Assembly: GCF_910592395.1 (NCBI RefSeq) | Contig: NC_088316.1 | Coordinates: 14,694,001-14,758,000, forward strand | Reading direction: 5' to 3' | Source: Lineus longissimus | Lineage: Eukaryota; Nemertea; Pilidiophora; Heteronemertea; Lineidae | DNA length: 64,000 bases | Part shown: piece by piece, positions 2,713-29,885 of the stretch | Position numbering within the stretch: position 1 is the first letter of the stretch | Layout of the letters: each line of letters starts with the position of its first letter | The notes under the pieces: generated by a model | What the model was told of the DNA's origin: nothing | What the model saw: the letters and a program-made list of their open reading frames with translations, nothing else | Databases searched by the model: none | Translations under genes and position numbers: made by a program

Positions 2713-3724
2713 CATTGGCTACAATGACGGTAGACTTCACGAGCATGCATAGATATCGATTTTTTTACAATTTATTTTATCGTTGATGTTAGAATAAATG
2801 TACATCTATTCTAATGTCATGTATTATTTTATCGTAAACACTAGAATTCATGTATTCCGGTGTCCGTGATAATTTACCGGTGATTTCGACCAACAGTTAT
2901 CCAAAGTGTCAGTTACACCTGATAACCATGCAGAGAGAACTATTGCTTGAATATTAAGTCAGCTTCAGAGAATGCCCGCACCCATTATCTACCGTGGTCT
3001 CGAAGATGTAACACTGGGTACGGTACGGTATGCCTGTTTCTTAGCAATGTATACAAAACTATTTTTCTTAAAATAAAAAGCACTCTCACAATGACTGCCA
3101 CGACAAAAAAAAGCAGAAGATTCTGTGGTGATATGTACTAATTAGTTCATTTTTATTTGTCAAGCAGAAGGTTACACAATGGATACAAGCACGTTGACAC
3201 CATACACTATCACCGGGCTGTGCATTCGTCAGCACTAAATATCCGTTGACCGCGCTCAGCCCCTTTTAGTGATCCGAAAACATTTCAATGCACACATACA
3301 AAGCAACATGAAACATTACTCGTCAAGTTGGGTGCAGATTTTAAATGTTTCTATAAACACAGTGTGTCTCATTTGTAGAATATTTGAAAGTTTTGAACAC
3401 ACAACAAACAATCATTGCAAAACGTTAGTCTAATGTGTATGTATAGAGAGATCTATCACTATCCTTATATCATCAAGTCAAGAACAGCAGTGTCTTGGGT
3501 CAAAGTGTTAAGAACCGTGGCACAAACGGGGCTCAGGTTCTTAATAGGTATTCAGGTGGCTACATGCATATTGTGCACATATTATATTCCTCATACAAAC
3601 GTGAACATTTTACTATGTTCTGTATTAAGATAGAAGAGGCCCTGCCTTCGTGTGACTTAATCTGACATACCTGGCTCACGCCTACACTAGTCTCTCTTTA
3701 AATTTCCATTCCCAAAATGTCAAG
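2713..3724. other. 3' flank of TRPV-like gene, unit 1
   Basis: There is no coding signal here. It lies downstream of the minus-strand TRPV-like gene and probably holds its 3' UTR. A minus-strand AATAAA is present (TTTATT at 3152-3157), about 570 bp after the stop codon. The equivalent stretch in unit 2 is 10559-11573. Confidence 0.4.
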
Positions 3725-5749: not shown

Positions 5750-6100
5750 ATTGACCTGCAATGAGTGAATTTGTTAAATTGTGTACCGCTTTTGTCAATA
5801 AAGCCTCTGACAAATAGAAATTGATATTCCGATTTACCAGATGACGTGTGTGAGCATAAATGTTGCGCGCGGTCTCTGCGGACTATTTGGTTTTCCTCCT
5901 CGAAGTTGACAGTACGTTGCCAGGGGCGATGCAAACACACAATGTGACTAAAAGCATTTTTAGGAAGCAGGTATCACGCCAGTATACAGTTTTAAATCAG
6001 AGCACTGGAAATGCACTTTTAGGTATTTGCAGGAAATTTCTGAGAATATCTTATGAAATTTTTTATGAATATCTAATCAGAAATGGATGACAAACTTACC

Positions 6101-7443: not shown

Positions 7444-9075
7444 CAGGGGAACGCACACCGCATTTTGATTGTAATTATGACTATACGAATGAATCCGAGA
7501 TGCTTAAGTTATCAAGTTTCTCAGCTTTGTTTCGTTATAAGGAGATCAAAGTTAGTCTCTCAATTATTTATGGCCCATTGGCGCGTTTAACTGTCTTACC
7601 AGCTACTAGTAGTTGCCCTCTTGAGTATGTTAGACAATTGGCTCCGATCTCGCATCAATCGTTTAAACCCGAATTATACAAGAAGCCCTCAATAAATTTT
7701 CATTTACATGTGCAGCATCACAAATTGACATTAAGTTAGATAAGAAGTTTGATACCCATTCATTTATTTCGCTAATCCGTACTGCATAATTGATGCCAAT
7801 GGTGTAAGAGTGATGGGGCTCCATGTCAAAGGACTTATTGTGTCGTTGAGGGGTAGTGACCTGACTGCCCAAAGAAGCCCACACAATGGCCGAAACAGTC
7901 CTTGAAGCAGAGAAATCGGAATAAAAGTTAAGAAAATACAACAACTACCCCGATTTTAAAACACCAGACCCATGGCAGAGTCGGCTCCTGTTTCTTCTCT
8001 GTTCAGAGCTCTAATCACAATCTACAGAAATCTAAAGGATGCCGTCTTTAAAGGAAACTTATAGCGAGACGCTGATAAAATGATCCCTTTAATCGGCATG
8101 TGTAGGCACAATGATCAGACAGGCCTCCTACTTCAGCCATCAGAGAGAAAAAAACAAGATGTACAGATACACCGATGGAAAGTATAGCCTACATAGTTAA
8201 CTCCATATACATAATGTGTACTGTACCTGCGACAAAAATCCAATATGGTTATGATGCCGGCTATGATGATGACAGAATGATGATGATAGGTTATGAATGG
8301 GAATGAGCAAGTGTCCGGAATATTTCTTATGGATGGTTGACACGTCTCATTATGTTCCTTTTTTAAATGCTTGCATGTAGTTTTTCTTCTTGCAACCAGG
8401 CAAACGCTTTTTTCACCGAACGAAAAACAACAAAAAGGTCGACAGCGCAACAAGATGATAACGAATTAAGTGACGAAGAAATCATTGTTTATACCAGACG
8501 GCTTGCCAGAATCTGTCAAAAGAACCAGCAAAGAAGAAGCATAAAGAATGTCAATTGCATTAGGGAGTCCGCAGTTCATTAGCCAGAGAGAAATGGATGT
8601 CTCCGCGACTGAGCCCGATATGACCATTTAGTTCAGATGGCGCTAAATGATTCGCCCCTTGGCAGATTAATAGAACATGAGGACAGATTGTCTTGAGAGC
8701 TAGCGATTTAGACAAAATGGATTGCGAGGTTGATATAAAATATATGTTTTTGGAAAGCGCCGACTTCTGGACTAACCGAGAACTAACTTGCAGCACAACC
8801 TCCCGCATTGCCGATGTGGGATGTATCTCAATTGCTTTGTACCTCTTATCGACAGTTATGGCAGTTTGAGAGGATATAGGTCTCAGCTTAATAATCATTC
8901 TCTTCAACCTGCATGGTTTTCGATATGATATCAAAACGGAACGAAATAAGTTCTTTATTGAAACATCCTGATAATTTTTGATCTAATTCAACACTCATGT
9001 AACTACATAGGCGCCTCGGGCGAATAACGCCACTTCCTCTCAGATTCTGGCTAGAGTTGGATCCTTCGTGCTGGA

Positions 9076-9517
9076 CGCAAGGGCCCAAAGCGCCGCGTAG
9101 CGGCAAAAAAGCGAAGCTGGCGAAACATTTATAACGGGTCACCGTCACTTATTATTGGACTTATAGCGCATTTACGGGGTTGCAACTATTTTGCTTTATA
9201 GTGTCACCAGGAAATAAAAGCATGCGACCTAACGCCGATCTATTTGTATAAAGTGATAATTGGAAGGTATATAGTAGGAAATATCAATAAAATAATCATT
9301 CCATGTCGTCTTTTGAGGGCATATTTGATTGTAAAAAATATATGTGTACGTCACCGGAGTCTCTGCAATGATAATTTTATCACAGCAGTCTCGCGCAAGT
9401 AAAAGTTCTTTACCTATTAGTTCTTCACTTATTAGTCTCAATGTCTGGCGCAAAGCCAGACGTTTTCCATTACGATTTCACTACGATGTTTGACAAGAAG
9501 GAGCAGTGCGCGAGATT
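9076..9517. mobile_element. 442-bp block present only in copy 2 of segment 'a'
   Basis: Between identical flanks (CTGGA on the left, GAACTGCTTAG on the right), copies 1 and 3 have only 20 bp while copy 2 has 442 bp. The block begins GC-rich with alternating GCGCCGCGTAGCGGC, then becomes AT-rich, and contains a small hairpin (CTGGC-GCAAA-GCCAG, 9445-9459). I see no target-site duplication, terminal inverted repeat or transposase frame. It is either an insertion in copy 2 or ancestral sequence lost from the others with 20 bp of filler. The second is plausible because both short copies share the same filler. Confidence 0.5.
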
Positions 9518-10120
9518 GAACTGCTTAGATGTAAGTAACGTCACTCTCCTATCAGCATCCAGCCGGTGTTGTCATACCTCAGTTCAACCTCAACACATGC
9601 CAATGACAAAAATCACAGAAAATAAAGTGACAAAGCATGTGACCTAGTTTATTAAATCAAGGTACGTGAACATGATTGTAGACTGTAGTCGCCATGATTT
9701 TTCTGCGTTACAGAGTTATAAAAGCGTTCCGTCTAGGAATTTTTTCATTCTATGGAATACAATTTCCGGTTTTCATTTTAAATATTTCCGGTGTCTTCGA
9801 TATTTAAGTCGCTGAAAAGAGCAAATTAATCACATGAATCGTAATGTCATTATCAGTTACAGAAACGTCTACTTTTTTTAAAATTCACCAAAGTCATTCG
9901 TAATTTTGAACGTGCTTCATGTACGTGTACGTGTACATCAACCGGGAACCTGCACAACAAACCAATCATATCAAATCAAATTTGGGGGTTCAAGAATGTG
10001 GATTACAGAAAAATATCGGATATCTAAGCGGCTGTAAAGAATTGAATTGATCTCAAGAATCGTTAATCAATCAATGCACTATTCTATCGTCACAGAAATA
10101 CTGTTAATGCTCGCGCGATG

Positions 10121-10197
10121 TCATTTGCAGGAGCCAATCAGATAGCTCAGGTTGAGTGGGGTCATGAGGTTTGATTGTGTATCCAGGTTGATGCAGT
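10121..10197 (-). pseudogene. Relic of last exon of PAN-like secreted gene (junction 2)
   Basis: This is identical in content to the relic at 2275-2351. It holds the C-terminal 25 codons and stop of the PAN-like gene, cut at the same base and joined to the palindrome-bearing segment. That both junctions break at the same base means they descend from one duplication event followed by further unequal exchange, not from two independent breaks. Confidence 0.85.
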
Positions 10198-10295
10198 ACG
10201 GTGGCCCATAGATGCAGTGGCCCATAGAGGACATGAGTTTATTTTCAATATAATAGAAAATTTTTCTTTTTACAATGCGTTTTTTTTCTCTCGAA

Positions 10296-10558
10296 TTACA
10301 ACCGCCGTCGGATTCATTTCTCACCGCCGAAAAAATAATTTCCACCGCCGGGTAAAAAATAATAATTCCCACCACCGCCAAAGAAAAAAATATCCACCCC
10401 GGTGGAAATTAATATTGACCGCGGTGGAAATTAATATCCACCGCGGTGGAAATAATATCCACCGCGGGAGCTAATTCGTTATTGACACCGGGCGGATATT
10501 ATTTCCACCGCGGTGGATATTATTTCCACCGCGGTGGTTATTATTTCCACCGCGGTAT
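10296..10558. repeat. CCACCGCGGTGG palindrome array (unit 2)
   Basis: This is the second copy of the array at 2450-2712, with the same order of perfect and degenerate palindromes and the same central loop. The two arrays are almost identical in sequence. For a structure prone to slippage and deletion, this implies very recent duplication or ongoing homogenisation. Confidence 0.9.
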
Positions 10559-11573
10559 CATTGGCTACAATGACAGTAGACTTCACGAGCATGCATAGAT
10601 ATCGATTTTTTTACAATTTATTTTATCGTTGATGTTAGAATAAATGTACATCTATTCTAATGTCATGTATTATTTTATCGTAAACACTAGAATTCATGTA
10701 TTCCGGTGTCCGTGATAATTTACCGGTGATTTCGACCAACAGTTATCCAAAGTGTCAGTTACACCTGATAACCATGCAGAGAGAACTATTGCTTGAATAT
10801 TAAGTCAGCTTCAGAGAATGCCCGCACCCATTATCTACCGTGGTCTCGAAGATTTAACACTGGGTACGGTACGGTATGCCTGTTTCTTAGCAATGTATAC
10901 AAAACTATTTTTCTTAAAATAAAAAGCACTCTCACAATGACTGCCACGACAAAAAAAAGCAGAAGATTCTGTGGTGATATGTACTAATTAGTTCATTTTT
11001 ATTTGTCAAGCAGAAGGTTACCCAATGGATACAAGCACGTTGACACCATACACTAACACAGGGCTGTGCATTCGTCAGCACTAAATATCCGTTGACCGCG
11101 CTCAGCCCCTTTTAGTGATCCGAAAAAATTTCAATGCACACAAAAAACAAAGCAACATGAAACATTACTCGTCAAGTTGGGTGCAGATTTTAAATGTTTC
11201 TATAAACACAGTGTGTCTCATTTGTAGAATATTTGAAAGTTTTGAACACACAACAAACAATCATTTTTAAACGTTAGTCTAATGTGTATGTATAGAGAGA
11301 TCTATCACTGTCCTTATATCATCAAGTCAAGAACAGCAGTGTCTTGGGTCAAAGTGTTAAGAACCGTGGCACAAACGGGGCTCAGGTTCTTAATAGGTAT
11401 TCAGGTGGCTACATGCATATTGTGCACATATTATATTCCTCATACAAACATGAACATTTTACTATGTTCTGTATTAAGATAGAAGAGGCCCTGCCTTCGT
11501 GTGACTTAATCTGACATACCTGGCTCACGCCTACACTAGTCTCTCTTTAAATTTCCATTCCCAAAATGTCAAG

Positions 11574-13598
11574 TCATCCTCTCACCGCTTTGGCTGCATT
11601 CTTCAGAACAAGAATCTTATGATCAAAAACCCGCCGCTTGCAGCGAAAGGCCCAGCCTAATACAAATGCAATCCTCCGCTCGACAGTCATGGCTATCTCG
11701 AGGCGATGGAGTTTGTGAATGATCGTGCCGTTCTCTGTAATCTCCGAGTGTTTGGTCGACATGACAGCGATCAGGAAATTGATGAGGAGAATGGTCACAA
11801 CAACAATAAAGGCGATGTGAAGGATCTTAATGAGAAATAAGACCTGGATCTCTCGGAATTCCGTCACTTGCACCATGTTTAACATAATGGTGAATGTGCT
11901 GTAGAAACCATTGGCATAGTTTGCGAATTCCATTCTGGAGCAGTCCAATTTCAGAAGCTCTGTAAAGATCAGTGCGAATGAAAGGAATATAAGCAAGAAA
12001 ACAGCAGAGAACTGGGCTAGAGCCATCATCATGCGCTGGAAACCGATCACAAACATTCCCAAGCCAGGGAGACATTGCATGAAGTAGAGCAAGCTCCAAA
12101 TAGTCATCACTTTGGCTACGCCGTATGATGTGACCGCGAATCGGACGAGACCCGAGGAGTATGCGGAAGGGTTCTCTGCAGTTGGTGAAGAAGATAGGAT
12201 GTTCATGCCAATTGCGAAGAAGATCATGTACCCAACACTGAACAGGAAAAAGGCAGCCCTGAAAAATGCCGAACTAATAGCATGACTTTTCTTCCCTGCG
12301 AGTTTTTTAAATTTTCGGTTTCTCCATCTGCGTATCACCACCAAGACCAGCTCAACGGCATCAATGCTGAGGGAGAACGCTCCTATGGCTATTAGTATGC
12401 TTCGCGAATCGTCAACAAAGTCATCACTTTTAGTCCGCGATCTGTACATCTTGAATAAGCCTCTAGTAATGCACACCAATGAAGTATTCTTATTTCGCGG
12501 CAAATTTGGTACAAATGAGTACATCTTTGCAAGAATATCAGCATCGGTTGTTGCGTTTGAGATATAGGTACCAATAATTGCTTTCCTATTGTTGTCGCCG
12601 GTAAGCAATACGTATTCCATTATCCTAAAAAGTACCTCTGAGCCGATCATGTTTATGTACACGAAGATCAAGTAGACGACTCGGTAGAGGAACCAGGCGA
12701 TCACGGCTGGGCGCATCAAGGAGATGACACGGCTCCGCCAGGCATCGATGACTGGCGAGGACATCAGGCCACTCTTTCGGAGCGCGCACATCCTGTCCTC
12801 AGTTACATTAACCAAGTCTCTTAGCGGGGATAATTCCCTCCTTGACCCGGCCATGATGTATTCACTAAAATCATACCTGCACTGTACGACAGGACCGGAC
12901 ACCTCTTCCTGTAACTTGTAGACACCTTTTGTTTCTATGAAGCTATCTACGATTTTAAATTTGCCAAGTTTGGTAGCTAACTCAAGTGGCCTCAGTCCGT
13001 CCTCGTTTTCTGCATGAAGTAATCGTTTCCTTTGGTGTTCTTTTCCATAAAATCGCAAAAGCCTTTGATACAAATCAACATATTCCGTCTCTTCTGCAAA
13101 TTCCATAGAACTCCCAAGAATCAGTGCATGCGCCATGTTGCTATTCCAAACATCCGTCGTCTGCAGAACTTCGTCCCCAAACCCTCGGCACAAGTACTCC
13201 AGGATTTGTTTTGAGCAGAACATGGCTGCCAATGTCGCAGGGTAACAGAAGTAGCACATTTTGAGGAAGCCTTTGTTATAACTATTCTCAAAGCCGTGTT
13301 TGAATTCATCATTTTTTATCAGTAAACTCACAATTCGCTTCTTGTCCACATTCTCAGATAGATTCTCCAGAAGATATTTAAATGAACTGATATCATCTGA
13401 CTGCAGTATTTCCAATAACTCATACTTGCTTTCGCCAGCCAGAATTGGTTGTGGGTTTTGAAGCACGGAGTTCATGGTGGTGAGTGTATCCTGGCACGGT
13501 TGCAGCGAAAGTTCTTCGACATTTTCATTCTCGTACCACATATTCCAGGGCTGAACTTTGTATGAAGAGGCCAGCTCGGGCTGACCCCCGTTCTTCAT
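11574..13598 (-). CDS. TRPV-like ion channel, tandem copy 2 (674 aa)
   Basis: Near-identical paralogue of 3725-5749, with an intact frame and the same start context: acceptor GCAG/GTCAATATG and exon start 13604. The 5' UTR intron is 13605-13948, with donor CAG/GTAAGT. Nine residues differ, numbered from this ATG: S13Y, A217V, Q288R, I291V, A322V, A372T, E393D, A470S and I485V. By eye the coding region has about 10 replacement and 7 silent changes, which suggests at most mild constraint since duplication. The ankyrin-like region, S4-S5 linker, pore (FTIMLNMVQV), S6 and TRP-box are unchanged, so both copies look functional. Its product is expected to do the same job as copy 1, raising dosage or giving separate expression. 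Confidence 0.88.
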   Translation of the reverse strand: MKNGGQPELASSYKVQPWNMWYENENVEELSLQPCQDTLTTMNSVLQNPQPILAGESKYELLEILQSDDISSFKYLLENLSENVDKKRIVSLLIKNDEFKHGFENSYNKGFLKMCYFCYPATLAAMFCSKQILEYLCRGFGDEVLQTTDVWNSNMAHALILGSSMEFAEETEYVDLYQRLLRFYGKEHQRKRLLHAENEDGLRPLELATKLGKFKIVDSFIETKGVYKLQEEVSGPVVQCRYDFSEYIMAGSRRELSPLRDLVNVTEDRMCALRKSGLMSSPVIDAWRSRVISLMRPAVIAWFLYRVVYLIFVYINMIGSEVLFRIMEYVLLTGDNNRKAIIGTYISNATTDADILAKMYSFVPNLPRNKNTSLVCITRGLFKMYRSRTKSDDFVDDSRSILIAIGAFSLSIDAVELVLVVIRRWRNRKFKKLAGKKSHAISSAFFRAAFFLFSVGYMIFFAIGMNILSSSPTAENPSAYSSGLVRFAVTSYGVAKVMTIWSLLYFMQCLPGLGMFVIGFQRMMMALAQFSAVFLLIFLSFALIFTELLKLDCSRMEFANYANGFYSTFTIMLNMVQVTEFREIQVLFLIKILHIAFIVVVTILLINFLIAVMSTKHSEITENGTIIHKLHRLEIAMTVERRIAFVLGWAFRCKRRVFDHKILVLKNAAKAVRG

Positions 13599-13949
13599 AT
13601 TGACCTGCAATGAGTGAATTTGTTAAATTGTGTACCGCTTTTGTCAATAAAGCCTCTGACAAATAGAAATTGATATTCCGATTTACCAGATGACGTGTGT
13701 GAGCATAAATGTTGCACGCGGTGTCTGCGGACTATTTGGTTTTCCTCCTCGAAGTTGACAGTACGTTGCCAGGGGCGATGCAAACAGACAATGTGACTAA
13801 AAGCGCTTGTAGGAAGCAGGTATCACACCAGTATACAGTTCTAAATCAGAGCACTGGAAATGCACTTTTAGGTATTTGCAGGAAATTTCTGAGAATATCT
13901 TATGAAATTTTTTATGAATATCTAATCAGAAATGGATGACAAACTTACC

Positions 13950-15348
13950 TGCACTTGAAAACGACTATTTTGTGATGATTTCCTCTGGCTGATCCGACAT
14001 TACAACCCTGCTCATGACTCCTCAGTCATTGTTATCATCCGTGAAAGCCCAACCGGATGCTAATTCTATTTGGGAAGTCTTTGTCATGCAGAACTGTAAC
14101 ATTTGGTTAGCCTGACAGTTGCCACAGTTTTAGAATGTTTAGTAAATATACCAAACCAAAAACATTATCTAGACATTGGTTTATAATGTGAAATCAAATT
14201 GCTCTCGAATAGTATAGTCATGGTCATACTGCTTATAAAGGAATGTCGATAATTTAAAAGAAAAATGTATCATGGATGGCCGGCACCGTGGAATGGCACT
14301 TAACAAATTGGAGAGAGAATTTAGGCGAACAAAGGTAGCCGATGTTGCATTTGATCTATGACGTTAATGACATCGTGCAATTTATGAGACACTAGGCCGA
14401 CACGATTTTTAAAAACGTTCACATAATTTGTCAACAGACGCGACAGTGGATCCATATTCATGACAAACTTTGCCACAATTTCCCCACTGTGTCATTGTAT
14501 TTTTTTTTGTTATTAATTTTAATTCCGAATTTATGAATACATGCGCGACGAGATGTACATTAAATAGAGATTTGCATCCATAACTCCAGAAATTGAGGAT
14601 GCTACTGCAAAAAAGTACCAAGCGTAATTTTTTGCATTCTGAACAAAGAATAGGCAAAATCCACAGCGAGGTTAATGGACAATGCATTACTTCCTGCAGG
14701 GCCATGCACTGGCGGCGCAAGAAGGAGTATTTGGCTCCTGGCAACGCGTCTAACGCGCAGGTTATCCCTTCAAACGGCTGACCCTGATATGTGCTTTTGC
14801 GAAATGATTTAAACAAGGGTGTAAACAAATCTACATGTTTGCACTGACAGTTATTTGTTCCGGAATTCTGATTCGCCATGACATGCAGTTTTGCGATGGC
14901 ATTTAATTCGTTTATAGCGCCTTTGATAACAACACAAAAATGGAATGTAAATGACCAGTGTGTAGTCATGATGCAGTGAGATATATTACAAAGACTTTTT
15001 GAAGCCACTGGGGAGAATCTTAAAAGAAAAAAGACATAATGAAGTCCAATCGTTCTAAACTCATTTTTATTTGGCACTTAATTCGATTGCATCGCCTTTT
15101 AAGTCAATACATGATGAAACTACATCCCGAAAGTAGCTAAAAAGTTCATGTAATTTGTATTAGACTTGCAAATAATGGCTTCGTCGGTAGGGTACAAAGA
15201 CTTTGATGAAACCATTGGGACCGACAAAACTAGGAATCAATGTTGGCGCCAGGGTGAAATTTCACCAAATGTCTACTCGAATGCAACATTTATGTCATTA
15301 ACACGAAAATAAAATTGGTACTTCGATACACGTCGAAAGATTTTTTAC
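13950..15348. other. 5' flank of TRPV-like gene, unit 2
   Basis: Presumed promoter side of the second channel copy. Relative to unit 1 it has an extra block of about 35 bp near 14000 and one of about 25 bp near 15105. Apart from the unidentified frame at 14409-15077 I see no coding or named regulatory signal. Confidence 0.3.
14409..15077 (-). other. Unidentified 222-codon open frame upstream of TRPV-like copy 2
   Basis: This is the longest frame in the region apart from the channels. The middle part has several cysteines and a basic stretch. The same DNA in unit 1 is interrupted by length changes in homopolymer runs, leaving 92 codons (6721-6999). It lies on the channel's strand, upstream of its 5' UTR exon. 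I recognise no domain. It could be decayed mobile-element sequence or chance. The loss of frame in the sister copy at under 2% divergence argues against a maintained gene. Confidence 0.2.
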
Positions 15349-17628
15349 CAGGGGAATGCACACCGCACTTTGATTGTAATTATGACTATACGAATGAATC
15401 CGAGATGCTTAAGTTATCAAGTTTCTCAGCTTTGTTTCGTTATAAGGAGATCAAAGTTAGTCCCTCAATTATTTATGGCCGATTGGCGCGTTTAACTGTC
15501 TTACCAGCTACTAGTAGTAGACAATTGGCTCCGATCTCGCATCAGTCGTTTAAACCCGAATTATACCAAGAAACCCTCAACAAATCTTCATTTACATGTG
15601 CAGCATCACAAATTGACATTAAGTTAGATAAGAAGTTTGATACCCATTCATTTATTTCACTAATCCGTACTGCATAATTGATGCCAATGGTGTAAGAGTG
15701 ATGGGGCTCCATGTCAAAGGACTTATTGTGTCGTTGAGGGGTAGATAATTCAGCAGAGTAAGTTATACCCGTGACCTGACTGCCCAAAGAAGCCCACACA
15801 ATGGCCGAAACTGTCCTTGTAGCAGAGAAATCGGAATAAAAGTTAAGAAAATACAACAACTACCCCGATTTTAAAACACCAGAGCCATGGCAGAGTAGGC
15901 TCCTGTTTCTTCTCTGTTCAGAGCTCTAATCACAATCTACACAAATCTAAAGGATGCCGTTTTTAAAGGAAACCTATAGCGAGACGCTGATAAAATGATC
16001 CCTTTAATCGGCATGTGAAGGCACAATGATCAGACAGGCCTCCTACTTCAGCCATCAGAGAGAAAAAAGCAAGATATACAGATACACCGGTGGAAAGTAT
16101 AGCCTGCATAGTAACCTCCATATACATAATATGCACTGTACCTGCGACAAAAATCCAATATGGTTATGATGCCGGCTCTGATGATTACAGAATGATGATG
16201 ATAGGTTATGAATGGGAATGAGCAAGTGTCCGGAATATTTCTTATGGATGGTTGACACGTCTCATTATGTTCCTTTTTTAAATGCTTGCATGTAGTTTTT
16301 CTTCTTGCAACCAGGCAGACGCTTTTTTCACCGAACGAAAAACAACAAAAAGGTCGACAGCGCAACAAGATGATAACGAATTAAGTGACGAAGAAATCAT
16401 TGTTTATACCAGACGGCTTGCCAGAATCTGTCAAAGGAACCAGCCAAGAAGAAGCATAAAGAATGTCAATTGCATAAGGGAGTCCGCAGTTCATTAGCCA
16501 GAGAGAAATGGATGTCTCCGCGACTGAGCCCGATATGACCATTTAGTTCAGATGGCGCTAAATGATTCGCCCCTTGGCAGATTAATAGAACATGAGGACA
16601 GATTGTCTTGAGAGCTAGCGATTTAGACAAAATGGATTGCGAGGTTGATATAAAATATATGTTTTTGGAAAGCGCCGACTTCTGGACTAACCGAGAACTA
16701 ACTTGCAGCACAACCTCCTGCATTGCCGATGTGGGATGTATCTCAATTGCTTTGTACCTCTTATCGACAGTTATGGCAGTTTGAGAGGATATAGGTCTCA
16801 GCTTAATAATCATTCTCTTAAACCTGCATGGTTTTCGATATGATATCACAACGGCACGAAATGCGTTCTTTATTGAAACATCCTGATAATTTTTGATTTA
16901 ATTCAACGTACATGAAACTACATAGGCGCCTCGGGCTAATAACTCCACTTCCTCTCAGCTTCTGGCCAGTGTTGGATCCTTCGTGCTAGATACCATACAA
17001 CATGTACAAGGAACTGCTTAGATGTAAGTAACGTCACTCTCCTATCAGCATCCAGCCGGTGTTGTCATACCTCAGTTCAACCTCAACACATGCCAATGAC
17101 AAAAATGACAGAAAATAAAGTGACAAAGCATGTGACCTAGTTTATTAAATCAAGGTACGTGAACATGATTGTAGACTGTAGTCGCCATGATTTTTCTGCG
17201 TTACAGAGTTATAAAAGCGTTCCGTCTAGGAATTTTTTCATTCTATGGAATACAATTTCCGGTTTTCATTTTAAATATTTCCGGTGTCTTCGATATTTAA
17301 GTCGCTGAAAAGAGCAAATTAATCACATGAATCGTATGTCATTATCAGTTACAGAAACGTCTACTTTTTTTAAAATTCACCAAAGTCATTCGTAATTTTG
17401 AACGTGCTTCATGTACGTGTACGTGTACATCAACCGGGAACCTGCACAACAAACCAATCATATCAAATCAAATTTGGGGGTTCAAGAATGTGGATTACAG
17501 AAAAATATCGGATATCTAAGCGGCTGTAAAGAATTGAATTGATCTCGAGAATCGTTAATCAATCAATGCACTATTCTATCGTCACAGAAATACCGTGACT
17601 GTTAATGCTTGCGCGTGCTGAAATGATG

Positions 17629-18983
17629 TCATTTGCAGGAGCCAATCAGATAGCTCAGGTTGAGTGGGGTCATGAGGTTTGATTGTGTATCCAGGTTGAT
17701 GCAGTGATCATCCCTTGTACAGTGGAGAATGAGCTCTGGATGTGCAGTAGAACCTCCAGAGCGACGCAATGAAAATTATATGAAATCACGTCCAGAGTAT
17801 GCCATTTCGATAATGACTATACCTACCCTTTCTGAACTGATTGTAGGCCGGATTATCCGTATACAGCAGCTCATGGTCCAAACAGTTTTTCGATTTTAAC
17901 CAGCATTCGTTTTTTCTCCATTGGAAAGACCTGCACCTACTCATTGCTGAACACTTAAATCCACAATCCGCCAAAGATATGTAAGTCTGGTGGTCGATGT
18001 TGAAGTCTGTGTAGGTGTTCGGGCAATCGCCAAACGAATGGACGAAGTTCTTTGAGACGCTGAAAGCAGGGAAATATATATTTGACGGCATCTGAACCTT
18101 CTGTATCAGCGAGGTCGCAGCGTCTTCAGTTCATGTTTGGGGAGCCGAGTACTCCGTGGGTGAAGGACCGAGAAAGTGAAGGTGCCATACTTTGTCTAAT
18201 TGTCTCTCTATCACCTTGTCGAACTGTAAAACATTTCATAAAGGAGTTATGTTGTTAAGCGGCGCGCTTGTAGTACAATATTGATTCTGATAATTGCTTT
18301 GAATATGATGGCTCAAATAAGATAAAGGTGTCGTTAACAGAATCACGTGTGTCTTCATGTTAATCTTTAATTTCATTAACATATTTGATGTAATAAACTT
18401 ACTCTGCGCTTGCTTTAGTAAGCTGATCTGTAAATATTCAATAAATGCTGTTTTAATGAAAAGCATAATTAAGTGTATAAAAATACTGATTCAGGACTTC
18501 TTGTTGCACACTTGCGCTGTTCGCCGCTGCTCTTCCCTTGCCTCTCAATTTCCATCTTGCGCCAACGGGCCGTGAAGTGTAGGGAGCCTTTCATGAGTTT
18601 CTGTAGGCAGCCAGACGGGATATCAATTTTATGAAAATCAGCTGAATTATTGGTACAATGTAGAATCCTCTACTATCATATTCAACCCCAAGTTAACTGA
18701 GCCAACGAAACTTACCCACTTGTGCGATAAGGTCCTTCACGATATCTTTCAAACTGACTATTGTCATGGCTGTAGCCTCCGCTTCGTCCTTCAATTCTCC
18801 AACCTTGACATCCAGATTGACTACAGCCGAAGACACCTCGCCCTTTAAACTTGTGACAATTGCTTGAGTAGATGGACAGAAATATTTGATCATTTCCACC
18901 GTGTTCCCAGTATCACTCGTGTGTCCGAGTGTAAAAAGGACCAAGAGCAGCAGGATTGCTGATGACTTCATCTCGTAATGCAT
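17629..18983 (-). CDS. Small secreted coiled-coil and PAN/apple-like protein (225 aa)
   Basis: Four exons fit in phase: 18720-18983, 18191-18223, 17827-18100 and 17629-17735. Exon 1 gives a signal peptide (MKSSAILLLLVLFTLG from the second Met at 18971) and the start of a helical stretch. Exons 1-2 form a heptad-like coiled coil, with LKDIVKDLIAQ joined to FDKVIERQLDK. Exon 3 encodes a PAN/apple-like fold: a spaced cysteine pattern with YTDF, ADCGFKCSAMSRC, FQW and CWLKSKNC. Exon 4 adds CTRDDHC and ends GSCK. It is probably an extracellular binding protein that oligomerises through the coil. The donor of exon 1 is uncertain: CAA/GTGGGT keeps frame with exon 2, whereas the stronger G/GTAAGT four bases further on does not. 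Exon 4 straddles the duplication edge at 17705. Confidence 0.75.
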
Positions 18984-20351
18984 CGTTTAGAACTTCTCAA
19001 TACGTACAAAAATTTGTTTTGATTCGAGAATTTGCTGATCGTGTGAGCAGCCGTGTTTAAATAAAGTGTTTATCGGTACTCTCTCTCGAACTATAAAGAT
19101 AAGGTTATCAAAAAAGCTGGCATCTCCCATCCCATTTATCTCGACTAACCAACAAAAGAAGAATCATTCACCAGTACTAAAGTCGGTCATGTAACTACGG
19201 GTTTTTTAAGAACTAAATATCCTCGTCAATTTGGGCCACTGTGCAAAGCCTAGCTTGCCTAACTGGTGTAGGATGGTTAACTCTATAGATATTCATCAAG
19301 TCATAGCTGTATGCTAGACACTTTCCGTTATAATTCAAATAACACGAAATTTCAAAAACATATATTTGTACAAACTGAACTGCTCAACACATTACCCCCA
19401 ACAATAGATGACTGGTTTCTAATCCCACGGGATGGCACACGTGTACATGTATATACCATGTTCAGATACAATGTTTGCCAATGTTTGAGTGAAAAAACAC
19501 AACAAACGGTAGGTAACGTCCGTGTACACACTGACATCAAAACGCAGCCAGCATACAGACTCTGACATACAGACATACAGACGAATATCATGAGATTTCC
19601 CCTGTGACCAACAAAACGACTATTCCATTGACGTAATGTCGGCATATGGTTAGATAAGCCTTTTCTTCTGTTTGCTCAAAATGATGTTTGTCTGGCGAAG
19701 GTAAATACGCCTCAACTAAACTAAGGTAGGTGTGACAGACCAACATCTCTTCTACATTCGAGTAATTGGTTTCCCCCACCCCATTTGCTGCCAAACTGTT
19801 TTATGTTTTTGCAACATTGGCAAAGTATCGGAGGGGGTCCTTGGTTACCCGCGAATCCATGTAAACGCATAATATTTGGACGGTTCATTGATTCATTTAC
19901 AGAGTAAGCTAAACTGCTGGTTACTTTCTGTTCAAGTTGGGTATCTAGAGGGTATATTTGAAATATTTGATCATGTATCGAAAGCCATCAAATTCCAAAA
20001 AAACTGTCACTCTTGCATATCGTTCTGGAACAAATAATCAGATTTCATAACTCCAACTTTGACTTGTTGGGGTTGCACAAATATATTTAGCTATAAATAT
20101 GTTGTTGCGCATTATTTACTTGGGTTTATTGAGAGTATAAAGATCCATTTTGTTCCATAATGCTTTTAGTCAAAAATCTGACAGAGCCTCAGGACAAAGT
20201 GTTTCTGCATCCTTTCCCCAAGTACCCAATGTAAGTGACACAGATTATGACGTGGATAATAGATGCTGCTGCTTATTAGTGAAGCCATACCGACTACATT
20301 AACGCTAATTTCAACCGTTGTTGTCTGAGGGAAGTGATCGGCAAACCAGTG
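18984..20351. other. Intergenic, between divergent PAN-like and TRPV-like genes
   Basis: This holds the promoters of the two flanking genes, which point away from each other. I see a short imperfect run of CATACAGA units near 19553-19582 and no coding exon I can support. A possible acceptor (GTTGTTGTCTGAG) at about 20328 suggests that the TRPV-like gene to the right also begins with an upstream 5' UTR exon somewhere here. Confidence 0.4.
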
Positions 20352-22061
20352 ATGCACCACAACAATCAGGTAATGCCAACAGTCGAGGTGGTTTCGTTCA
20401 CCCGCTGCGGGGTAACCGATTCGCAATCCGAATTCCTAGCAGCTCTACAGCGCTGCGACAAGAAAGCGCTGGAGCTCTTTCTCTCCGATATACCACAGGA
20501 CGAATTGGTTACATTTGTCAACCAACCGATTTGTAGTAATGCGGAATGCCCGGAACCCAATGTATTCGGAGGTCATATGAATTTCACGCTACCCATTTTC
20601 CTGGCGTGCTCTTTCGGCTCGGTTGAAACTGTGGAACTCTTGTGCAATGCAGGCGCGGATATCTACGGTGTGGACAGTGGGAACGTCCCGCTCATTCAGG
20701 CATTGTGTTGGACCTCCGCTTACAAACCAGACTTGGAAGAAAAGCTGTGTTCTGTCTTTAGGGCAATTATGGTCCATGCTGCAACTGTGAAGATGCGCAC
20801 CTTGTTGCTTTTGACTCTGGATTCCGATGGTTACAGGCCAATTGAACTAGCAAGCCGAGTCGGGGCGTATCTACTCCTTGCTGCGATCGTGGACGTACCA
20901 GGCGTGTATAAGATCATCTCGGAAGAGACCCCTACGTTCAGGACTGTAACCTATGACGTGTCGGAGTACGAAGCCGAGGGACCCATACAACGACACCGGA
21001 CGTCCCCTCTCAACCTCCTAATATATCTGACCAATAAAGATCTAGAAAAACCCGGTAGCAGGAAGATATTTGAACATCCACTATTTCGCAATTGGATCAG
21101 CTTAAAAATGCGACGGGAGATTCCAGGATTAGTGATCTCGTTTTTTTGGTATTTTAACTTCATTGTAATGTTTACGATAACGGACGACACTGGTTACAGG
21201 GATAATACCAACTGCACTTGGAACGGAGAACAGAAGCATACCTACAGGATGCTTCCAGATAACAGCCGAGTTGTTATCTTCAATTTTTTAGTAGGTGTAA
21301 ACGTATTGGTAACAGTCGCGGAGATGGTTATATTCTCAATAGAAATCGCTAAAACTAAACCCCAATGCCGTCCACTGGACGTTACAAGAGGAAAATCACC
21401 AGTGAGCGTCTCCTTTGGTGTGACATACACATTATACGTCCTGTTCCAACTCATCTACTTTATACTGACTCTTAGCGATGCTGGCGAAGATAACAGCACC
21501 ATGGCAGAAGCAAGGCTGGTCCTACGCGTCAGTATTGTCTTATTCGCCTTCACCATGCTTCTCTACTACGTCCAGTTCCTGCCAGTAATAGGCCACTACG
21601 TCATAGGATTCTTCAGCTGTGTATCCACGTTCATGTACTTCGCTGTAATCTACATGATCGTGTTTTTGTCCTATGCGGAAGGATTCCGGGTCGTGGCGAT
21701 CTACTATTGTGTGGATAGTATAGGATATGACACGGAAGCGTACTACTCCACCTTCCTCGTGATGCTAAATATGATAGATTTCAAATCTCTGTTTAGTAAA
21801 GTACCGATTTCTGTCATATTTCTCCATGTTAGTGCAATAATTTGTCTCGTGTTCCTCATGCTGAATTATATCATCGCCATTTTGAGTGAAAATATCTCAA
21901 ATCTCGCGAGGTACAGCGGTATTATTCGTCAACTCGTGAGATTAGCCGGGATCTTGGATATGGAGTATTTGAGGCGTACGGTCGTTCGTATTGTAAAGTG
22001 TGGCCGCAAGTGTCGGAATCCGCCCCGCGTTGTGATACAATACAAGGAGCTAATTTACTGA
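20352..22061 (+). CDS. TRPV-like ion channel, diverged paralogue (569 aa)
   Basis: This is a single-exon relative of the two tandem channels, on the opposite strand. The order is the same. An ankyrin-like region contains NAGADIYGVDSGNVPLIQAL and SDGYRPIELASRVG, followed by the pre-S1 motif YDVSEYEAEG. Six membrane helices follow (S1 near 260-277, S6 near 490-512), with the pore YYSTFLVMLNMIDF near 464-477 and TRP-box-like IIRQLVRLAGILDME after S6. The S1-S2 loop has an NCT sequon and several charged residues. It is about 100 residues shorter at the N-terminus than the tandem pair. The frame is open upstream but without ATG. ATG 20352 is the first in frame; ATG 20373 is an alternative. The stop at 22061 lies 449 bp from the stop of the convergent channel gene. 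An ATTAAA at 22407-22412 could be its poly(A) signal. Confidence 0.88.
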   Translation: MHHNNQVMPTVEVVSFTRCGVTDSQSEFLAALQRCDKKALELFLSDIPQDELVTFVNQPICSNAECPEPNVFGGHMNFTLPIFLACSFGSVETVELLCNAGADIYGVDSGNVPLIQALCWTSAYKPDLEEKLCSVFRAIMVHAATVKMRTLLLLTLDSDGYRPIELASRVGAYLLLAAIVDVPGVYKIISEETPTFRTVTYDVSEYEAEGPIQRHRTSPLNLLIYLTNKDLEKPGSRKIFEHPLFRNWISLKMRREIPGLVISFFWYFNFIVMFTITDDTGYRDNTNCTWNGEQKHTYRMLPDNSRVVIFNFLVGVNVLVTVAEMVIFSIEIAKTKPQCRPLDVTRGKSPVSVSFGVTYTLYVLFQLIYFILTLSDAGEDNSTMAEARLVLRVSIVLFAFTMLLYYVQFLPVIGHYVIGFFSCVSTFMYFAVIYMIVFLSYAEGFRVVAIYYCVDSIGYDTEAYYSTFLVMLNMIDFKSLFSKVPISVIFLHVSAIICLVFLMLNYIIAILSENISNLARYSGIIRQLVRLAGILDMEYLRRTVVRIVKCGRKCRNPPRVVIQYKELIY

Positions 22062-22510: not shown

Positions 22511-25500
22511 CTAAAGCCAAAGAGGGTATTTGATCCAATAAAACAGATTGAAGATGAAAAAGGCCACTGGGAAGGCCAGTCTTGACCAATAGTCTATTGC
22601 TACAGACACCGGTCTTTTCTTTTTGAGGGCGAGGCAGCTACATCGCTCTGTTGCGTCTGGTTCCACCACTGTGACTTTATGATTAGAACGGGACTCGGCA
22701 CCCCCTGAGGCTTTGCCATCAGTTGGCGTGAGTGTGTTACTGCCGGGATGGTTGCTGGTACCTCCAATCCACCCATTGCTGTTCTGTAGAAAAAAACCAA
22801 TGTTCATGTACAGTAGCGTTGTGCAATGTTCATCGCATAAAAACTTTTCAACTGATGTATGGCAATCTTCTTGTTCTGCCTCATTACTTACTGTGGTGAC
22901 GAACAGTTTTTCGCCTTCACATGCTAAGGAATTCCGTCGTCAGACAATTGGTTCAAACACCTATCTTCGACATTACATTTTCATCATTATTCTTATTGCT
23001 TCACGTTTTGTAATGGCGGCGACACCTTAAAATACATTGGAGTCAATACTGACCTTTCCGTGAAAAGATGCCTCTCCATTCCGAATACTGTTATCGCCAC
23101 CGCTGCGGTCTACGTCCTCCGGAGTCGGTTGAACTTTAGGTCCACTCGGAGGCAGATTCGGTTTAGGCGAGTCCTCCTTCTTCTCACAATAGTTCAGAAC
23201 ATAATGTACCAAACAGTATTCCGCAAATGCTATGAGGACGAAACTAAGGCACGTGGACATCCAAACGTCTATCGCCTTGACGTAGGAGACCTTTGGAAGT
23301 TGACCAAGCGAACCGGAGCTCTTCGTCGTAATTGCCAAGACCGTCAAAAGGCCGAGGGCGACCCGTGCGGGAACTGCCTTCGGATCCATGTAGAAGTTCA
23401 ACCATGACAACATGACGAATATGATGGTCGGAATGTATGTCTGGATGATGTAGAACCCAGTGTCGCGGTCGAGTTGTATCTCAGCTTCGATGCAAGAAAA
23501 GCTACCTGGAAGTGGAGAAATTTTCAACACGTTTCAATGAGATGATCATGAATTGTTGGGTTGGTATAAAATGCGTCAAAGCAGATTCTTGGTAAGTGGA
23601 TTATGCCCACGTTTGAGTTGTTCCAGAATAGAAGTAACCTTGCTGTTTGTATTGGTTGTCTCACTATTAAACATCGCTCGGATGGAACTGTAATTTCGCC
23701 CAATATCTCGGCTGCCGCGGCGGTTTTAACCAAAATGTTATCTCTAGTCCACCCTCGTGGTGCTAATTGGTGTGACAACCAGTTCGGTATCGATTCCTTA
23801 AATAACTGGTAGAAGTTTTGGTAACATCGTGAAACCCTTAACCGGCTGGTAGCTTTATAGGACCCACTACCTTGCGGTTTCGCCCTACGAATAATGACGG
23901 GAACAAAAATAGATCTCTACAAGATTCCGGCATGATTCGTACCTGTAACCGTTTCATGTACGCATCTGGACGTATCCACCTTTGCTACGGTGAACTCGGG
24001 GAGATGCATAGCTGGATCGTACTTGACACCGTAACTGTTCCAGGACAGCCTCAGCTCATCCGTTGGGAAGCCGACTTCAAAATAAAAAGGCGCAATGCAT
24101 GTCATTTTATCAAACTCAGACCCGGAAAGGAACAAATATATTTAGTCTGTTGTAGAAACTGGTGTGTAGAGTGATCACAATCTTTGAATCGGTGATCTAT
24201 TTTTGAACAGAAATTGTTCTACATATATGTAGCAGTCCGAAGCGCGGTGGCTATTTGACATCTTATCGAATCTTACCAAACTTCTTATATAACCGAGCAA
24301 AAAAATAATCTGAGATCGTTGTATTCACAGAAAACATAGAGGCGTAATTAGTCACCGGCCCCCGAAACCATTAACCTGCTACTTCCTTGCAAAATGTCAA
24401 CGAAGCATGATTGTGTTCGGCTGACTCGGAAATCGGGTGGTCGGCATGCAGATGGCAACACTTAGAAACTGTTGACAGATGATTACTCTCGGAAACGATT
24501 TCCCCAACTTCTGATTGATATTATACTTACAGCTAGACAGGATGATGTGGCAGTACTGTGTATCATGTGGGAAGTAGTAAAGATTCATCTGACAGTTCAG
24601 AGTCGCAGTTATTCTGAAAGAATGCACGACAATCAAAGACAATGGCCAAGACACGAACCTGGTCATATGTTATCATACGTGAGAGAGGAGAAAAAGAATG
24701 ACAATCGTTGAAAAAGTATAGGAAACTTGCCAAACGTTGCCATTATAAATAAGAGACGAGATCAGATCAGACAGTGCTGGAAATCATGGTTCGGTAGGTT
24801 TAGAACATGGACAAGGACCCAAATGTTGTTGTCTCAATCATACGTATCTTCCTTTGCAGTTATTGGGGAAAATCGTCTTACTGAGCGTGACGCCTCCAGA
24901 AGGTGCTCTAATTGCGCAAACATTTGTATCACATGTGTCTTTTTATCGCCAAATAACTTACTTTTGCGCAAGGGTGACAACTCCTTGCGGTGTCACATGG
25001 ATATATCTGTTGTCGTGCGTCACCGTATGCACGGAGGCGCTCCTGGCATTCTTGAAGAACGTGTCCGGTGTCCATATATCGTCGTAGTAATAGCTGAGGA
25101 CCAAGCTGTGGTTGTAGGCGGGGTAGTAGTTGAACCTTTCGTCCGTCCACCATTGGTATAGGACCAATTCTAGGGTGTATTGCTGCACAATCAATGGAAG
25201 CACACGCGATATTATCATGATTAAAACTTGATTATGCGTGAGATAATTTCCTCTTAACGGTATAACGAGAACATGAAGAAATTTTTTACTACCGTACCAC
25301 AAAATCAATATATGCATATTACTCTTCAAAGTCGCAAATGCATTTAGCTTGTCGAGGTGCTGGATTAAAAAGTCGATTTCTATACCGGCCAATTATAAAT
25401 CATACTGCTACATGTAATACAACTTATACTGAGCAGAAGTTGGTAACCGTGGTATACAGAGATGGCACATTCTTCCGTAATTTCTCAAATTCGTCTGAGA

Positions 25501-26998
25501 AATGATTGTCTTAAAAAGAAAACGAGAAATAAAGTTCGGACAAACCGGAAAAATAACAGAAGAAATTGCCCTTTGCCACTGTGTGACGAACGCCCACTGC
25601 ATGTACTATGGAAAATAAGCCTTCAGAGACGCCGTCACCGAATATATGATGTGCATGCAAGAAAGAACATCAACGATATGATAGATAAAAAAAGTATTTT
25701 GTTAACATCAGCCAAGCATAAGCAAGAGAAGAGACGATTTAATCCACTGAAATACTTCAAACATCTTATGCTTTTGCTGTCTCATCGTAGGACGGGCTGG
25801 ATTACGTAATCTCGCGTGAATGGTCACCAACCGTCGACAGCAGACAGCAAGGATAGTGATGTCATGATAGCTTTACAACCAACACTGTTACCCGAGTATG
25901 GTTTAGTTGACAATTTCGCATTGGAAATTATCTTTGCGATGGAAAATATCGTCTCTATCCAAAATCTTACCATATGTGCTGTATCTACTGAACTTATACT
26001 TTTGATATACACTCCAATCTGGACATCATCGATAATTTCTGCAAGCAAAAAGCAAAGCGACATGCAGTGGCGACATTGCGACGAGCAGCAGAACCGTCTG
26101 AGAGGTCGCCAAAATCGAGGGGGCCAAGGAACGAGAACAAAAGAAGGCGTAACTCTTTTCGCGGATAGAGATTCGCGAAAATTCATTAGAGAAGCAAAAA
26201 GTGACACAAAGCCTTACCATTTCTTTATCATCAACGCCACCTATCGTATTTAACTGCATGCCAATTGACACAGCCATTTGTTCCTCTATCAAAATAAAAC
26301 AATGGAGAAAATATTCAACTTGACGTTGTTGCCTGCTGAATCTACGTATCTAACGTATTAATCTCTCTTGGCCAAAAATGATGCGGCACAAACGCACGGC
26401 CGGGTTAAATGTGGTCTTGAAGTGGTTTTTATTCGTACTGCCAACAACGGACTTTCATCTGGGCATATGTGAAATTCCGTTAATGCTTACCCGCTTCTAG
26501 GCCAGGTCGTAGATATTTATTGTACCCATTCAGAAGACGGTCAATGAAGTCTTCGTGGGTCTCGTTGTAAACGCTGATCCTATTTTGAATAACAAATAGA
26601 ATCTTTGAAAAGTAAGATAAAATAGGCGGTTCGGGTTGTTTGGGGCTTTAAACAAACAAATTGGCCCATTCATGTATTGGGCATTCCAGGACATGAGAAA
26701 TCATTTTCAAGCAAAATTGTTGCTTCTGAAAACACACGGTTAACCTATTTCCTATATTTGCCAGTCGATTTGGAAAAATTGCGGATACAGTAGAACTTCC
26801 CTATCAAGGACACCCTTGGGACTGACATACTAAGTATGATGTACTTTAAGGGAGGTGTTCTGATTACAGAATGAGAATTTTCGCGAAGACCTCAACCTAC
26901 CTCAGGTTCGCAAATGCTTCCGATCCAGGAAGGTGAACTAGTACTACGGCAGCTGCCGTAATGTAAAGGAGTAACCATCCGGAACTCTTCATCGCCAT
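22511..26998 (-). CDS. Cys-loop ligand-gated anion channel subunit, glycine/GABA/GluCl-like (471 aa)
   Basis: Eight coding exon positions agree in phase: 26901-26998, 26491-26579, exon 3 (26218-26285 or 25971-26038), 24962-25182, 24531-24613, 23943-24074, 23054-23505 and 22511-22783. The 68-, 221- and 83-bp exons are the classic set of this family. Exon 1 is a signal peptide (MAMKSSGWLLLYITAAAVV). The Cys-loop is C166-C180 (NLYYFPHDTQ inside). A second pair, C224-C235, is spaced as in glycine and glutamate-gated chloride channels. M1 is near 247-268. M2 follows the PAR signature of anion pores (VPARVALGLLTVLAITTKS). M3 ends before a proline-rich loop, and M4 (RLAFPVAFFIFNLFYW) is close to the C-terminus. 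Tyr94 replaces the agonist-binding Arg of GlyR loop D, and position 6' of M2 is Leu. The ligand is uncertain. A minus-strand poly(A) signal (TTTATT) lies at 22285-22290. Confidence 0.95.
25971..26038 (-). other. Alternative exon 3B (68 bp) of the anion channel
   Basis: Acceptor GCTTGCAG and donor ATG/GTAAGA bound exactly 68 bp. It encodes the same structural element as 3A with a different sequence (DDVQIGVYIKSISSVDTAHM). It lies 179 bp downstream of 3A in transcript order. Including both exons adds 136 bp and shifts the frame, so only one can be used in a productive mRNA. Confidence 0.88.
26218..26285 (-). other. Alternative exon 3A (68 bp) of the anion channel
   Basis: Acceptor TTTTGATAG and donor ATG/GTAAGG bound exactly 68 bp. 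The encoded segment (EEQMAVSIGMQLNTIGGVD..., ending KEM) is the first beta strand of the extracellular domain, with the family pattern V-I-G-x-x-I-x-x-V-D. It enters at codon phase 1 (exon 2 ends with a single G) and leaves at phase 0. This is identical to exon 3B, and both complete a Glu codon at the junction. Confidence 0.88.
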
Positions 26999-29660: not shown

Positions 29661-29885
29661 CGGAGAAAGCACGTCCATTGCTGTCGATGCCAAGAACCCA
29701 TAGACAGATCAAGGTGCATTTTTACAGAAGCCAAGATTATATTGACAGATCAAAGTGCATGGGTAAAGATACCAACAACCCATCGACAGATCAAGGAGCA
29801 TGGTTATCGAGGTTAAGAACCCATTAACAGATCAAGGTGCATGACTATAGGAACCAACAAGCCCTTGACTGATTGAGGTGCCTTG
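29661..29885 (+). repeat. 41-bp minisatellite, five clear units
   Basis: The motif GACAGATCAAGGTGCATG recurs with starts at 29702, 29743, 29784, 29825 and 29866, a constant spacing of 41 bp. A more degenerate unit may precede it from about 29661. The units diverge by several substitutions but not by length, so the array is old and not actively slipping. Confidence 0.9.

What the first reader, a model, noticed from the sequence alone, without database searches (positions are those of the whole stretch)
25971..26285. Two mutually exclusive 68-bp exons encode the first beta strand of an anion-channel receptor
Consecutive exons 26218-26285 and 25971-26038 are both exactly 68 bp. Both enter at phase 1 and leave at phase 0, and both encode the same element with different residues (VSIGMQLNTIGGVD versus VQIGVYIKSISSVD). 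Using both, or neither, would break the frame. Alternative 68-bp exon 3 cassettes are known in insect Rdl and GluCl channels. Here the same position is duplicated in what looks like a non-insect animal, so it is either convergent or very old. Each form would give a receptor with a different beta1 region and probably different agonist sensitivity.
Basis: partly seen in the sequence, partly recalled or inferred. Interest (0 to 1): 0.8.

Follow-up and report, generated by a model that had tools for sequence, protein, structure and literature searches.

The report
Swappable exon pair in worm receptor
A ribbon-worm gene for a glycine-receptor-like chloride channel carries two alternative copies of one small exon, so the animal could probably build two versions of the receptor that differ in the part linking transmitter binding to channel opening; the same trick is known in insects and vertebrates, so this looks like a further case of a known kind.

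Summary
A glycine-receptor-like subunit gene of the ribbon worm Lineus longissimus (minus strand, 26998-22511) has two consecutive 68-bp exons, 3A and 3B; either gives an intact 471-aa protein, while both or neither give an early stop. Of 161 open AG-N68-GT segments in the window, 3B and 3A rank first and second against a profile of relatives' exon 3. The recorded protein 'isoform X1' is exactly the 3A form. No transcript with 3B could be seen, so mutual exclusion is inferred, not shown. The cassette covers strand beta1 and the beta1-beta2 loop, 'loop 2'. 3A and 3B share 8 of 23 residues. 3A keeps the acidic loop-2 residue found in 216 of 222 relatives; 3B has Thr. The subunit lacks several usual agonist-site residues, so its ligand is unknown. 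I found no support for competing RNA structure or steric exclusion. New member of a known kind.

The parts
22511..26998 (-). GlyR-like Cys-loop anion-channel subunit gene, coding part from ATG to stop, 8 constitutive coding exons with exon 3 in two copies (3A, 3B)
   Evidence: exon joins give a 471-aa protein; 3A form identical to the Lineus longissimus protein P0001
26901..26998 (-). coding exon 1 (hydrophobic start, signal peptide by eye)
26491..26579 (-). exon 2, leaves after the first base of a codon
26218..26285 (-). exon 3A, 68 bp, EEQMAVSIGMQLNTIGGVDDKEM; present in the recorded isoform X1
26039..26217 (-). 179-bp intron between 3A and 3B; pyrimidine-rich (65%), eight YGCY, one TGCATG at 26066
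25971..26038 (-). exon 3B, 68 bp, EIIDDVQIGVYIKSISSVDTAHM; not seen in any protein record that I could read
24962..25182 (-). exon 4, 221 bp, begins at a codon start after either cassette
24531..24613 (-). exon 5, 83 bp, Cys-loop
23943..24074 (-). exon 6
23054..23505 (-). exon 7, M1-M3 with PAR motif before M2
22511..22783 (-). exon 8, end of the M3-M4 loop, M4, stop codon

Best explanation
The gene encodes a glycine-receptor-like anion-channel subunit of the ribbon worm Lineus longissimus. A 68-bp exon 3 was tandemly duplicated long ago, and the spliceosome joins exon 2 to either 3A or 3B and then to exon 4. Because 68 is not a multiple of three, transcripts with both or with neither stop early and far upstream of the last junction, so they would be degraded or give no receptor; only one-or-the-other transcripts make a channel (frame logic shown from sequence; actual exclusivity and the regulator inferred). 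The swap replaces strand beta1 and loop 2, part of the zone that relays agonist binding to the pore, in an otherwise identical 471-aa subunit. I infer that the two isoforms differ mainly in gating, apparent agonist potency or surface density, as reported for exon-3 forms of GLRA2, RDL and GluCl, and that a tissue- or stage-specific splicing factor chooses between them.
For: Both exons intact, same length and phase, GT-AG splice sites. Ranks 1 and 2 of 161 candidates by family profile. Both and neither give stops 911 and 616 nt before the last junction. Neutral-decay simulation, 20000 trials per start and distance: at 0.46 substitutions per site 0 trials from either exon kept open frame, splice dinucleotides and 3B's score, 0.07% (from 3A) and 0.2% (from 3B) kept 3A's score; at 0.2 per site 0.04-0.4% and 1.7-7.8%. 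The 3A form is exactly P0001, labelled isoform X1. Cassette residues 63-85 are beta1 (66-81) plus the beta1-beta2 loop in the model. Best sequence and fold matches are glycine receptors. Analogues, from passages: GLRA2 3A/3B and agonist potency, aphid RDL1 ad versus bd forms and GABA EC50, silkworm GluCl exon 3 and surface expression.
Against: No RNA reads were available, so use of 3B and exclusivity are untested. P0001's cluster has 3 members but only the 3A representative could be read. No ortholog with the pair was found: residues 30-165 of P0001 matched only P0001 among 78 candidates, so conservation between species is unknown. The simulation does not exclude an exon that died recently. 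No exclusion mechanism was identified. Among the analogues, Anopheles GluCl exon 3b and 3c forms are reported to have similar ivermectin sensitivity, so an exon-3 swap need not change every property.
Confidence: 0.85

Rival explanations
1. One of the two (more likely 3B, absent from the readable record) is no longer spliced in: a relic of the duplication.
For: Only the 3A form is seen among the proteins I could read. A recent loss would leave the exon looking intact; at 0.2 substitutions per site 0.4% of simulated 3B copies still score as 3B does and 7.8% as 3A does.
Against: A copy unselected since a split this deep would not keep open frame, AG/GT and the family pattern: 0 of 20000 trials at 0.46 and at 0.92 per site reach 3B's score. 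3B is the more family-like cassette (closer than 3A to 152 of 220 relatives, 3A closer to 7, ties 61).
Confidence: 0.08
2. Both exons are used, but exclusion is only apparent: splicing is unregulated, double-inclusion and skip products are made and removed by nonsense-mediated decay, perhaps as a way to tune the amount of receptor. (A variant of the best explanation, not exclusive of it.)
For: Both-in and both-out products stop 911 and 616 nt before the last junction. No steric block is evident: the AG-free zone before 3B's acceptor is 57 nt, so the branch point is probably over 100 nt from the 3A donor. No significant structure. Clones lacking exon 3 are reported for aphid Rdl1 and Rdl2.
Against: Nothing found speaks against it; the pyrimidine- and YGCY-rich intron would fit regulation but is a weak hint.
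Confidence: 0.3
3. 3B is the start of a separate short transcript from its own promoter rather than an alternative internal exon.
For: The frame of 3B stays open for 58 codons upstream into the 179-bp intron, with an ATG 7 codons before the exon. I did not search for promoters.
Against: Such a protein would lack exons 1 and 2, thus the signal peptide and first helix; 3B has its own AG after a pyrimidine tract and takes the phase that exon 2 supplies. For 3A the upstream frame meets a stop after 21 codons before any ATG.
Confidence: 0.03

Closest known systems
Vertebrate GLRA2 exons 3A/3B (glycine receptor alpha2A/alpha2B)
   Same: Same receptor class and same exon position; the two kinds of alpha2 cassette among my hits differ at positions 51-52 of GLRA1 numbering (SIA in P0014, SVT in P0016, from two bird species), in the same loop; the alpha2 forms are reported to differ in two residues and in agonist potency (passages of PMC3484359).
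   Different: Two residues differ there, 15 of 23 here. NOVA is a stated regulator of glycine receptor alpha2 splicing (passage); YCAY, its motif, is not enriched in the 179-nt intron (2 copies, reached by 79% of windows) and is 2.4 and 2.2 per 100 nt in the flanking introns against 1.7 in the gene's other introns, untested.
Insect Rdl exon 3a/3b(/3c)
   Same: Alternative exon 3 of a GABA-gated Cys-loop anion channel near loop D (passages of PMC2064938); aphid RDL1 ad and bd forms differ in GABA EC50.
Insect GluCl exon 3a/3b/3c
   Same: Alternative exon 3 of a glutamate-gated chloride channel; silkworm exon 3 choice affects response size, probably through surface expression (as cited in PMC12960926).
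   Different: Glutamate-gated; up to three cassettes against two here; Anopheles 3b and 3c forms had similar ivermectin sensitivity.

Membership tests
Cys-loop anion-selective receptor subunit, GlyR-like | Neur_chan_LBD and Neur_chan_memb domains | tested here: met
   E 1.4e-41 and 6.6e-28 for P0001
Cys-loop anion-selective receptor subunit, GlyR-like | Cys-loop (two Cys, 13 residues between), second Cys pair, PAR motif before M2 | tested here: met
   C166/C180, C224/C235, P276 A277 R278
Cys-loop anion-selective receptor subunit, GlyR-like | nearest solved relatives by sequence and fold are glycine receptors | tested here: met
   PDB sequence best hit GlyR alpha2, 1.3e-77; best-ranked Foldseek hits GlyR alpha2 and alpha3; model mean pLDDT 73.4
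functional glycine receptor | agonist-site residues R65, E157, Y202 (GLRA1 numbering; their roles are recalled) | tested here: not met
   here Tyr, Ser, Thr; relatives have Arg in 215, Glu in 184, Tyr in 193 of 223 rows, many of them vertebrate receptors
functional glycine receptor | gated by glycine | not testable with these tools
   needs oocyte or cell recording
mutually exclusive exon pair | adjacent homologous exons of equal length and phase with intact splice sites | tested here: met
mutually exclusive exon pair | both or neither breaks the frame | tested here: met
mutually exclusive exon pair | transcripts with each exon, none productive with both | not testable with these tools
   3A form present as a database protein; 3B form not seen; no reads held
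exon-3 alternative cassettes of Rdl, GluCl, GLRA2 | same position in the receptor | tested here: met
   for GLRA2 by alignment; for insects from paper passages only
exon-3 alternative cassettes of Rdl, GluCl, GLRA2 | descent from the same duplication | tested here: inconclusive
   23 residues cannot settle it, and insect cassettes were not aligned; the two GLRA2 cassettes share all residues but two, which suggests a separate and younger duplication or strong constraint

The most novel reading that the evidence does not exclude
The pair is a very old gating switch: the 3A/3B duplication predates the split of this gene from its Lineus paralogue P0003, and splicing toggles the near-universal acidic residue of loop 2 (acidic in 216 of 222 relatives; Asp in 3A, Thr in 3B) in a subunit with an altered agonist site, giving one receptor two coupling modes. 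Its relatives in other spiralians would then hide a second exon 3 that annotation has missed.
Probability: 0.15. Interest if true: 0.65.

Novelty: new member of a known kind. Interest (0 to 1): 0.42.

Why it matters
It puts a far more divergent exon-3 switch in a ribbon worm beside the insect and vertebrate ones, and suggests that one 68-bp exon, whose odd length itself punishes double use, is a recurrent target for making receptor variants. It would give a natural pair of receptors that differ only in beta1 and loop 2, useful for asking how that element sets coupling.

Tried and rejected
Competing RNA structure: the 179-nt intron folds at z -1.21 (25 of 200 shuffles as good), 451 nt around both exons at z -0.12 (49 of 100). 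Of five pairings of introns and exons tested, intron 3AB with intron 3 had a longer perfect complement than most shuffles (11 nt, 4 of 100) but an ordinary duplex energy (45 of 100); the other four were ordinary. Over five tests this is not significant. The 11-nt pair would bridge exon 3B (26060-26070 with 25594-25604) and is left as a lead.

Steric exclusion: a branch-point-like CTAAT at 26189 lies about 30 nt from the 3A donor, but AGs follow it; the AG-free zone of 3B's acceptor is 57 nt. Rejected as the likely branch point, without branch-point data.

Splicing-factor motifs: nine motifs counted in the 179-nt intron. YGCY (MBNL-type, recalled) has 8 copies, reached by 0.08% of 179-nt windows of the sequence; pyrimidine 65%, reached by 0.11%; TTCT 4, 3%; the wider PTB-type set 8, 6%; TGCATG 1, 10%; YCAY 2, 79%. 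Windows overlap, GC is higher in this intron, and the motifs were picked by me after the fact, so this is a hint only.

Third cassette: none with splice sites and a positive score. Flank homology of 3A and 3B: none beyond words of 10 nt or less; the one longer hit is the overlap of the two queried flanks. Isoform pairs differing only in exon 3 among held proteins: none but ours (224 of 230 proteins aligned, six left out for length), but clustering at 90% would hide them. Search of the worm's own assembly for paralogue loci: not completed.

The charge role of loop-2 E53 is contested: in GLRA1 neutralising D148 had noticeable effects, neutralising E53 did not (PMC11503617, passage); the D148 equivalent is kept here (D176). 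So the Asp/Thr difference need not act through charge.

Full report
What is there. On the minus strand between 26998 and 22511 lies a complete gene for a Cys-loop receptor subunit. I located its exon ends by sequence and splice sites: exon 1 26998-26901, exon 2 26579-26491, exon 3A 26285-26218, exon 3B 26038-25971, exon 4 25182-24962, exon 5 24613-24531, exon 6 24074-23943, exon 7 23505-23054, exon 8 22783-22511. With 3A or with 3B the joined frame is 471 codons; with both it stops after 99 codons inside 3B, 911 nt before the last junction; with neither after 152 codons in exon 5, 616 nt before it.

Whose gene. The best protein match in the 5.77-billion-sequence collection is P0001, 'glycine receptor subunit alpha-1-like isoform X1 [Lineus longissimus]' (7993 candidates scored, 120 of 973 hits listed). 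It is identical to the 3A form predicted here, and the window matches it without a difference inside each exon, so the window is from this ribbon worm or something nearly identical. That it is a RefSeq model is my reading of its name. The cluster has three members, of which only this one can be read; 'X1' suggests other isoforms but I could not see whether one uses 3B. A search with residues 30-165 found nothing but P0001 among 78 candidates: no close ortholog was found, so conservation of the pair between species could not be tested.

Is it more than chance. I built a profile from the 23 different exon-3 cassettes (at most two gaps) among 114 of the first 120 homologues; P0001 itself and five of unsuitable length were left out, the Lineus paralogue P0003 was kept in. 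In the window there are 448 AG-N68-GT segments on both strands, 161 open in the required frame. 3B scores 22.9 bits, 3A 13.8; the other 159 average -18.8 (sd 6.4), best -2.0. Without the splice-site condition one unrelated peptide reaches 14.0, so for 3A the conclusion rests on score plus splice sites plus position, and on the recorded protein. In a neutral-decay simulation (20000 trials each) at 0.46 substitutions per site (half of a Jukes-Cantor distance for 53% difference) 0 trials from either exon kept 3B's level, and 0.07% (from 3A) or 0.2% (from 3B) kept 3A's level; at 0.92 none and at most 0.005%; at 0.2 the figures are 0.04% and 0.4% for 3B's level, 1.7% and 7.8% for 3A's. Both cassettes have therefore been under selection as coding exons for most of their separate history; a recent loss of one is not excluded.

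How different and how old. 3A and 3B share 32 of 68 bases and 8 of 23 residues. Their introns show no similarity beyond short words. Among 78 relatives thinned below 85% identity, pairs whose cassettes are 30-40% identical (1219 pairs) have a median identity of 50% in the rest of the protein, 5-95% range 45-56%. The two exons are thus about as far apart as separate receptor subunits, though this gauge is coarse, since 2160 of the 3003 pairs lie between 45 and 55% anyway. The nearest paralogue, Lineus P0003 on a contig of the same length, is 46% identical in the rest, 52% in the cassette to 3B and 26% to 3A. Of 220 relatives with a readable cassette, 152 are closer to 3B, 7 to 3A, 61 tie. So 3B looks like the conservative copy and 3A, the recorded one, the derived copy; either the duplication is older than the gene's split from P0003 or 3A has evolved fast. 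I cannot decide between these.

What the cassette does. In the AlphaFold2 model of the 3A form (mean pLDDT 73.4, 25-row alignment) residues 63-85 are strand beta1 (66-81) and the beta1-beta2 loop. The best-ranked solved folds are glycine receptors. On GLRA1 numbering the cassette covers residues 35-56, the part in which mouse Glra1 exon 3 holds the A52S (spasmodic) and N46K (nmf11) mutations (table passage). Loop 2 with the Cys-loop and pre-M1 linker forms the transition zone that relays binding to the pore (passage of PMC3222680). At the E53 position 204 relatives have Glu and 12 Asp of 222 with a residue; 3A has Asp, 3B Thr. At 54-55 3A has Lys-Glu and 3B Ala-His; at 46 3A has Asn, as 151 relatives do, and 3B Lys. 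The relatives counted are rich in vertebrate receptors. I infer different coupling or gating. Against a simple charge story: E53 neutralisation in GLRA1 did not have the effect that D148 neutralisation had, D148's equivalent is kept, and both isoforms carry Asp at position 52.

Is it a glycine receptor. By domains, Cys-loop, second Cys pair, PAR motif and relatives, it is a GlyR-like anion-channel subunit. But the R65 position is Tyr (Arg in 215 of 223 rows), E157 is Ser (Glu in 184), Y202 is Thr (Tyr in 193) (the roles of these residues are recalled). The agonist is therefore unknown and it may work only in mixed pentamers. The statement that the isoforms differ in agonist sensitivity is an analogy.

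How the choice might be made. Exclusion by branch-point crowding is unlikely (57-nt AG-free zone at 3B's acceptor in a 179-nt intron). Competing RNA structure is not supported. The 179-nt intron is unusually pyrimidine-rich and rich in YGCY, which would fit a repressor of 3B or enhancer of 3A of the MBNL or PTB kind (their habits recalled), but this was picked out after counting nine motifs and is a hint only. The odd exon length makes any failure of exclusion non-productive, which by itself favours one-or-the-other among functional transcripts.

Compared with what is known. Insect Rdl and GluCl have two or three alternative exon 3s (passages of PMC2064938), with reported effects on GABA EC50 in aphid RDL1 and on surface expression in silkworm GluCl, but similar ivermectin sensitivity of Anopheles 3b and 3c (both as cited). 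Vertebrate GLRA2 has alternative exons 3A and 3B giving proteins that differ in two residues and in agonist potency. Cassettes of both kinds appear in my hits as SFGSIAETTM and SFGSVTETTM. Thus the position has been duplicated in insects, vertebrates and now a nemertean; the near-identity of the GLRA2 forms suggests that at least that pair arose separately. The ten paper searches (open-licence PubMed Central texts; some lists capped, such as 20 of 49 and 15 of 81) listed no title or abstract start about an exon-3 pair in a nemertean or other spiralian anion channel; I saw passages of ten of the listed papers, no whole text.

Verdict. A real and well-preserved pair of alternative exons, very probably used one at a time; ordinary in kind, notable for its divergence, its phylum and the atypical subunit it sits in. 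The decisive test is junction reads.

Noticed in passing
window 1-17705: A segment with a period of roughly 7.9 kb is tandemly repeated (1662-6148 with 9518-13997 at 98.7%, and 1-2351 with 15349-17705 at 98.6%); two copies hold an intronless 682-codon open frame (3725-5773 and 11574-13622, minus strand) matching Ion_trans.
   Followed up: partly
window 20283-22061 (+): An uninterrupted 592-codon open frame, tail to tail with the receptor gene, shows weak ankyrin and TRPV3-like similarity; perhaps a TRP-like channel.
   Followed up: partly
window 17789-18130 (-): Piece of a coding frame with a PAN domain (22.8 bits against a cut-off of 21.4); by eye a signal-peptide-like start lies upstream near 18980, perhaps of the same gene.
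   Followed up: partly
window 29686-29843: Tandem repeat, period 41, 3.9 copies, upstream of the receptor gene.
   Followed up: no
window 26060-26070 and 25594-25604: Perfect 11-nt complement that would loop out exon 3B and contains TGCATG; 4 of 100 shuffles do as well.
   Followed up: partly
window 26039-26217 (-): The reading frame of exon 3B stays open for 58 of 59 codons upstream into the intron, with an ATG 7 codons before the exon.
   Followed up: no
P0001, P0003, P0121, P0155: Four Lineus glycine-receptor-like proteins are recorded on a contig of the same length (20,549,149), which suggests a linked receptor family; P0003 and P0121 are labelled isoform X3 and X2.
   Followed up: no
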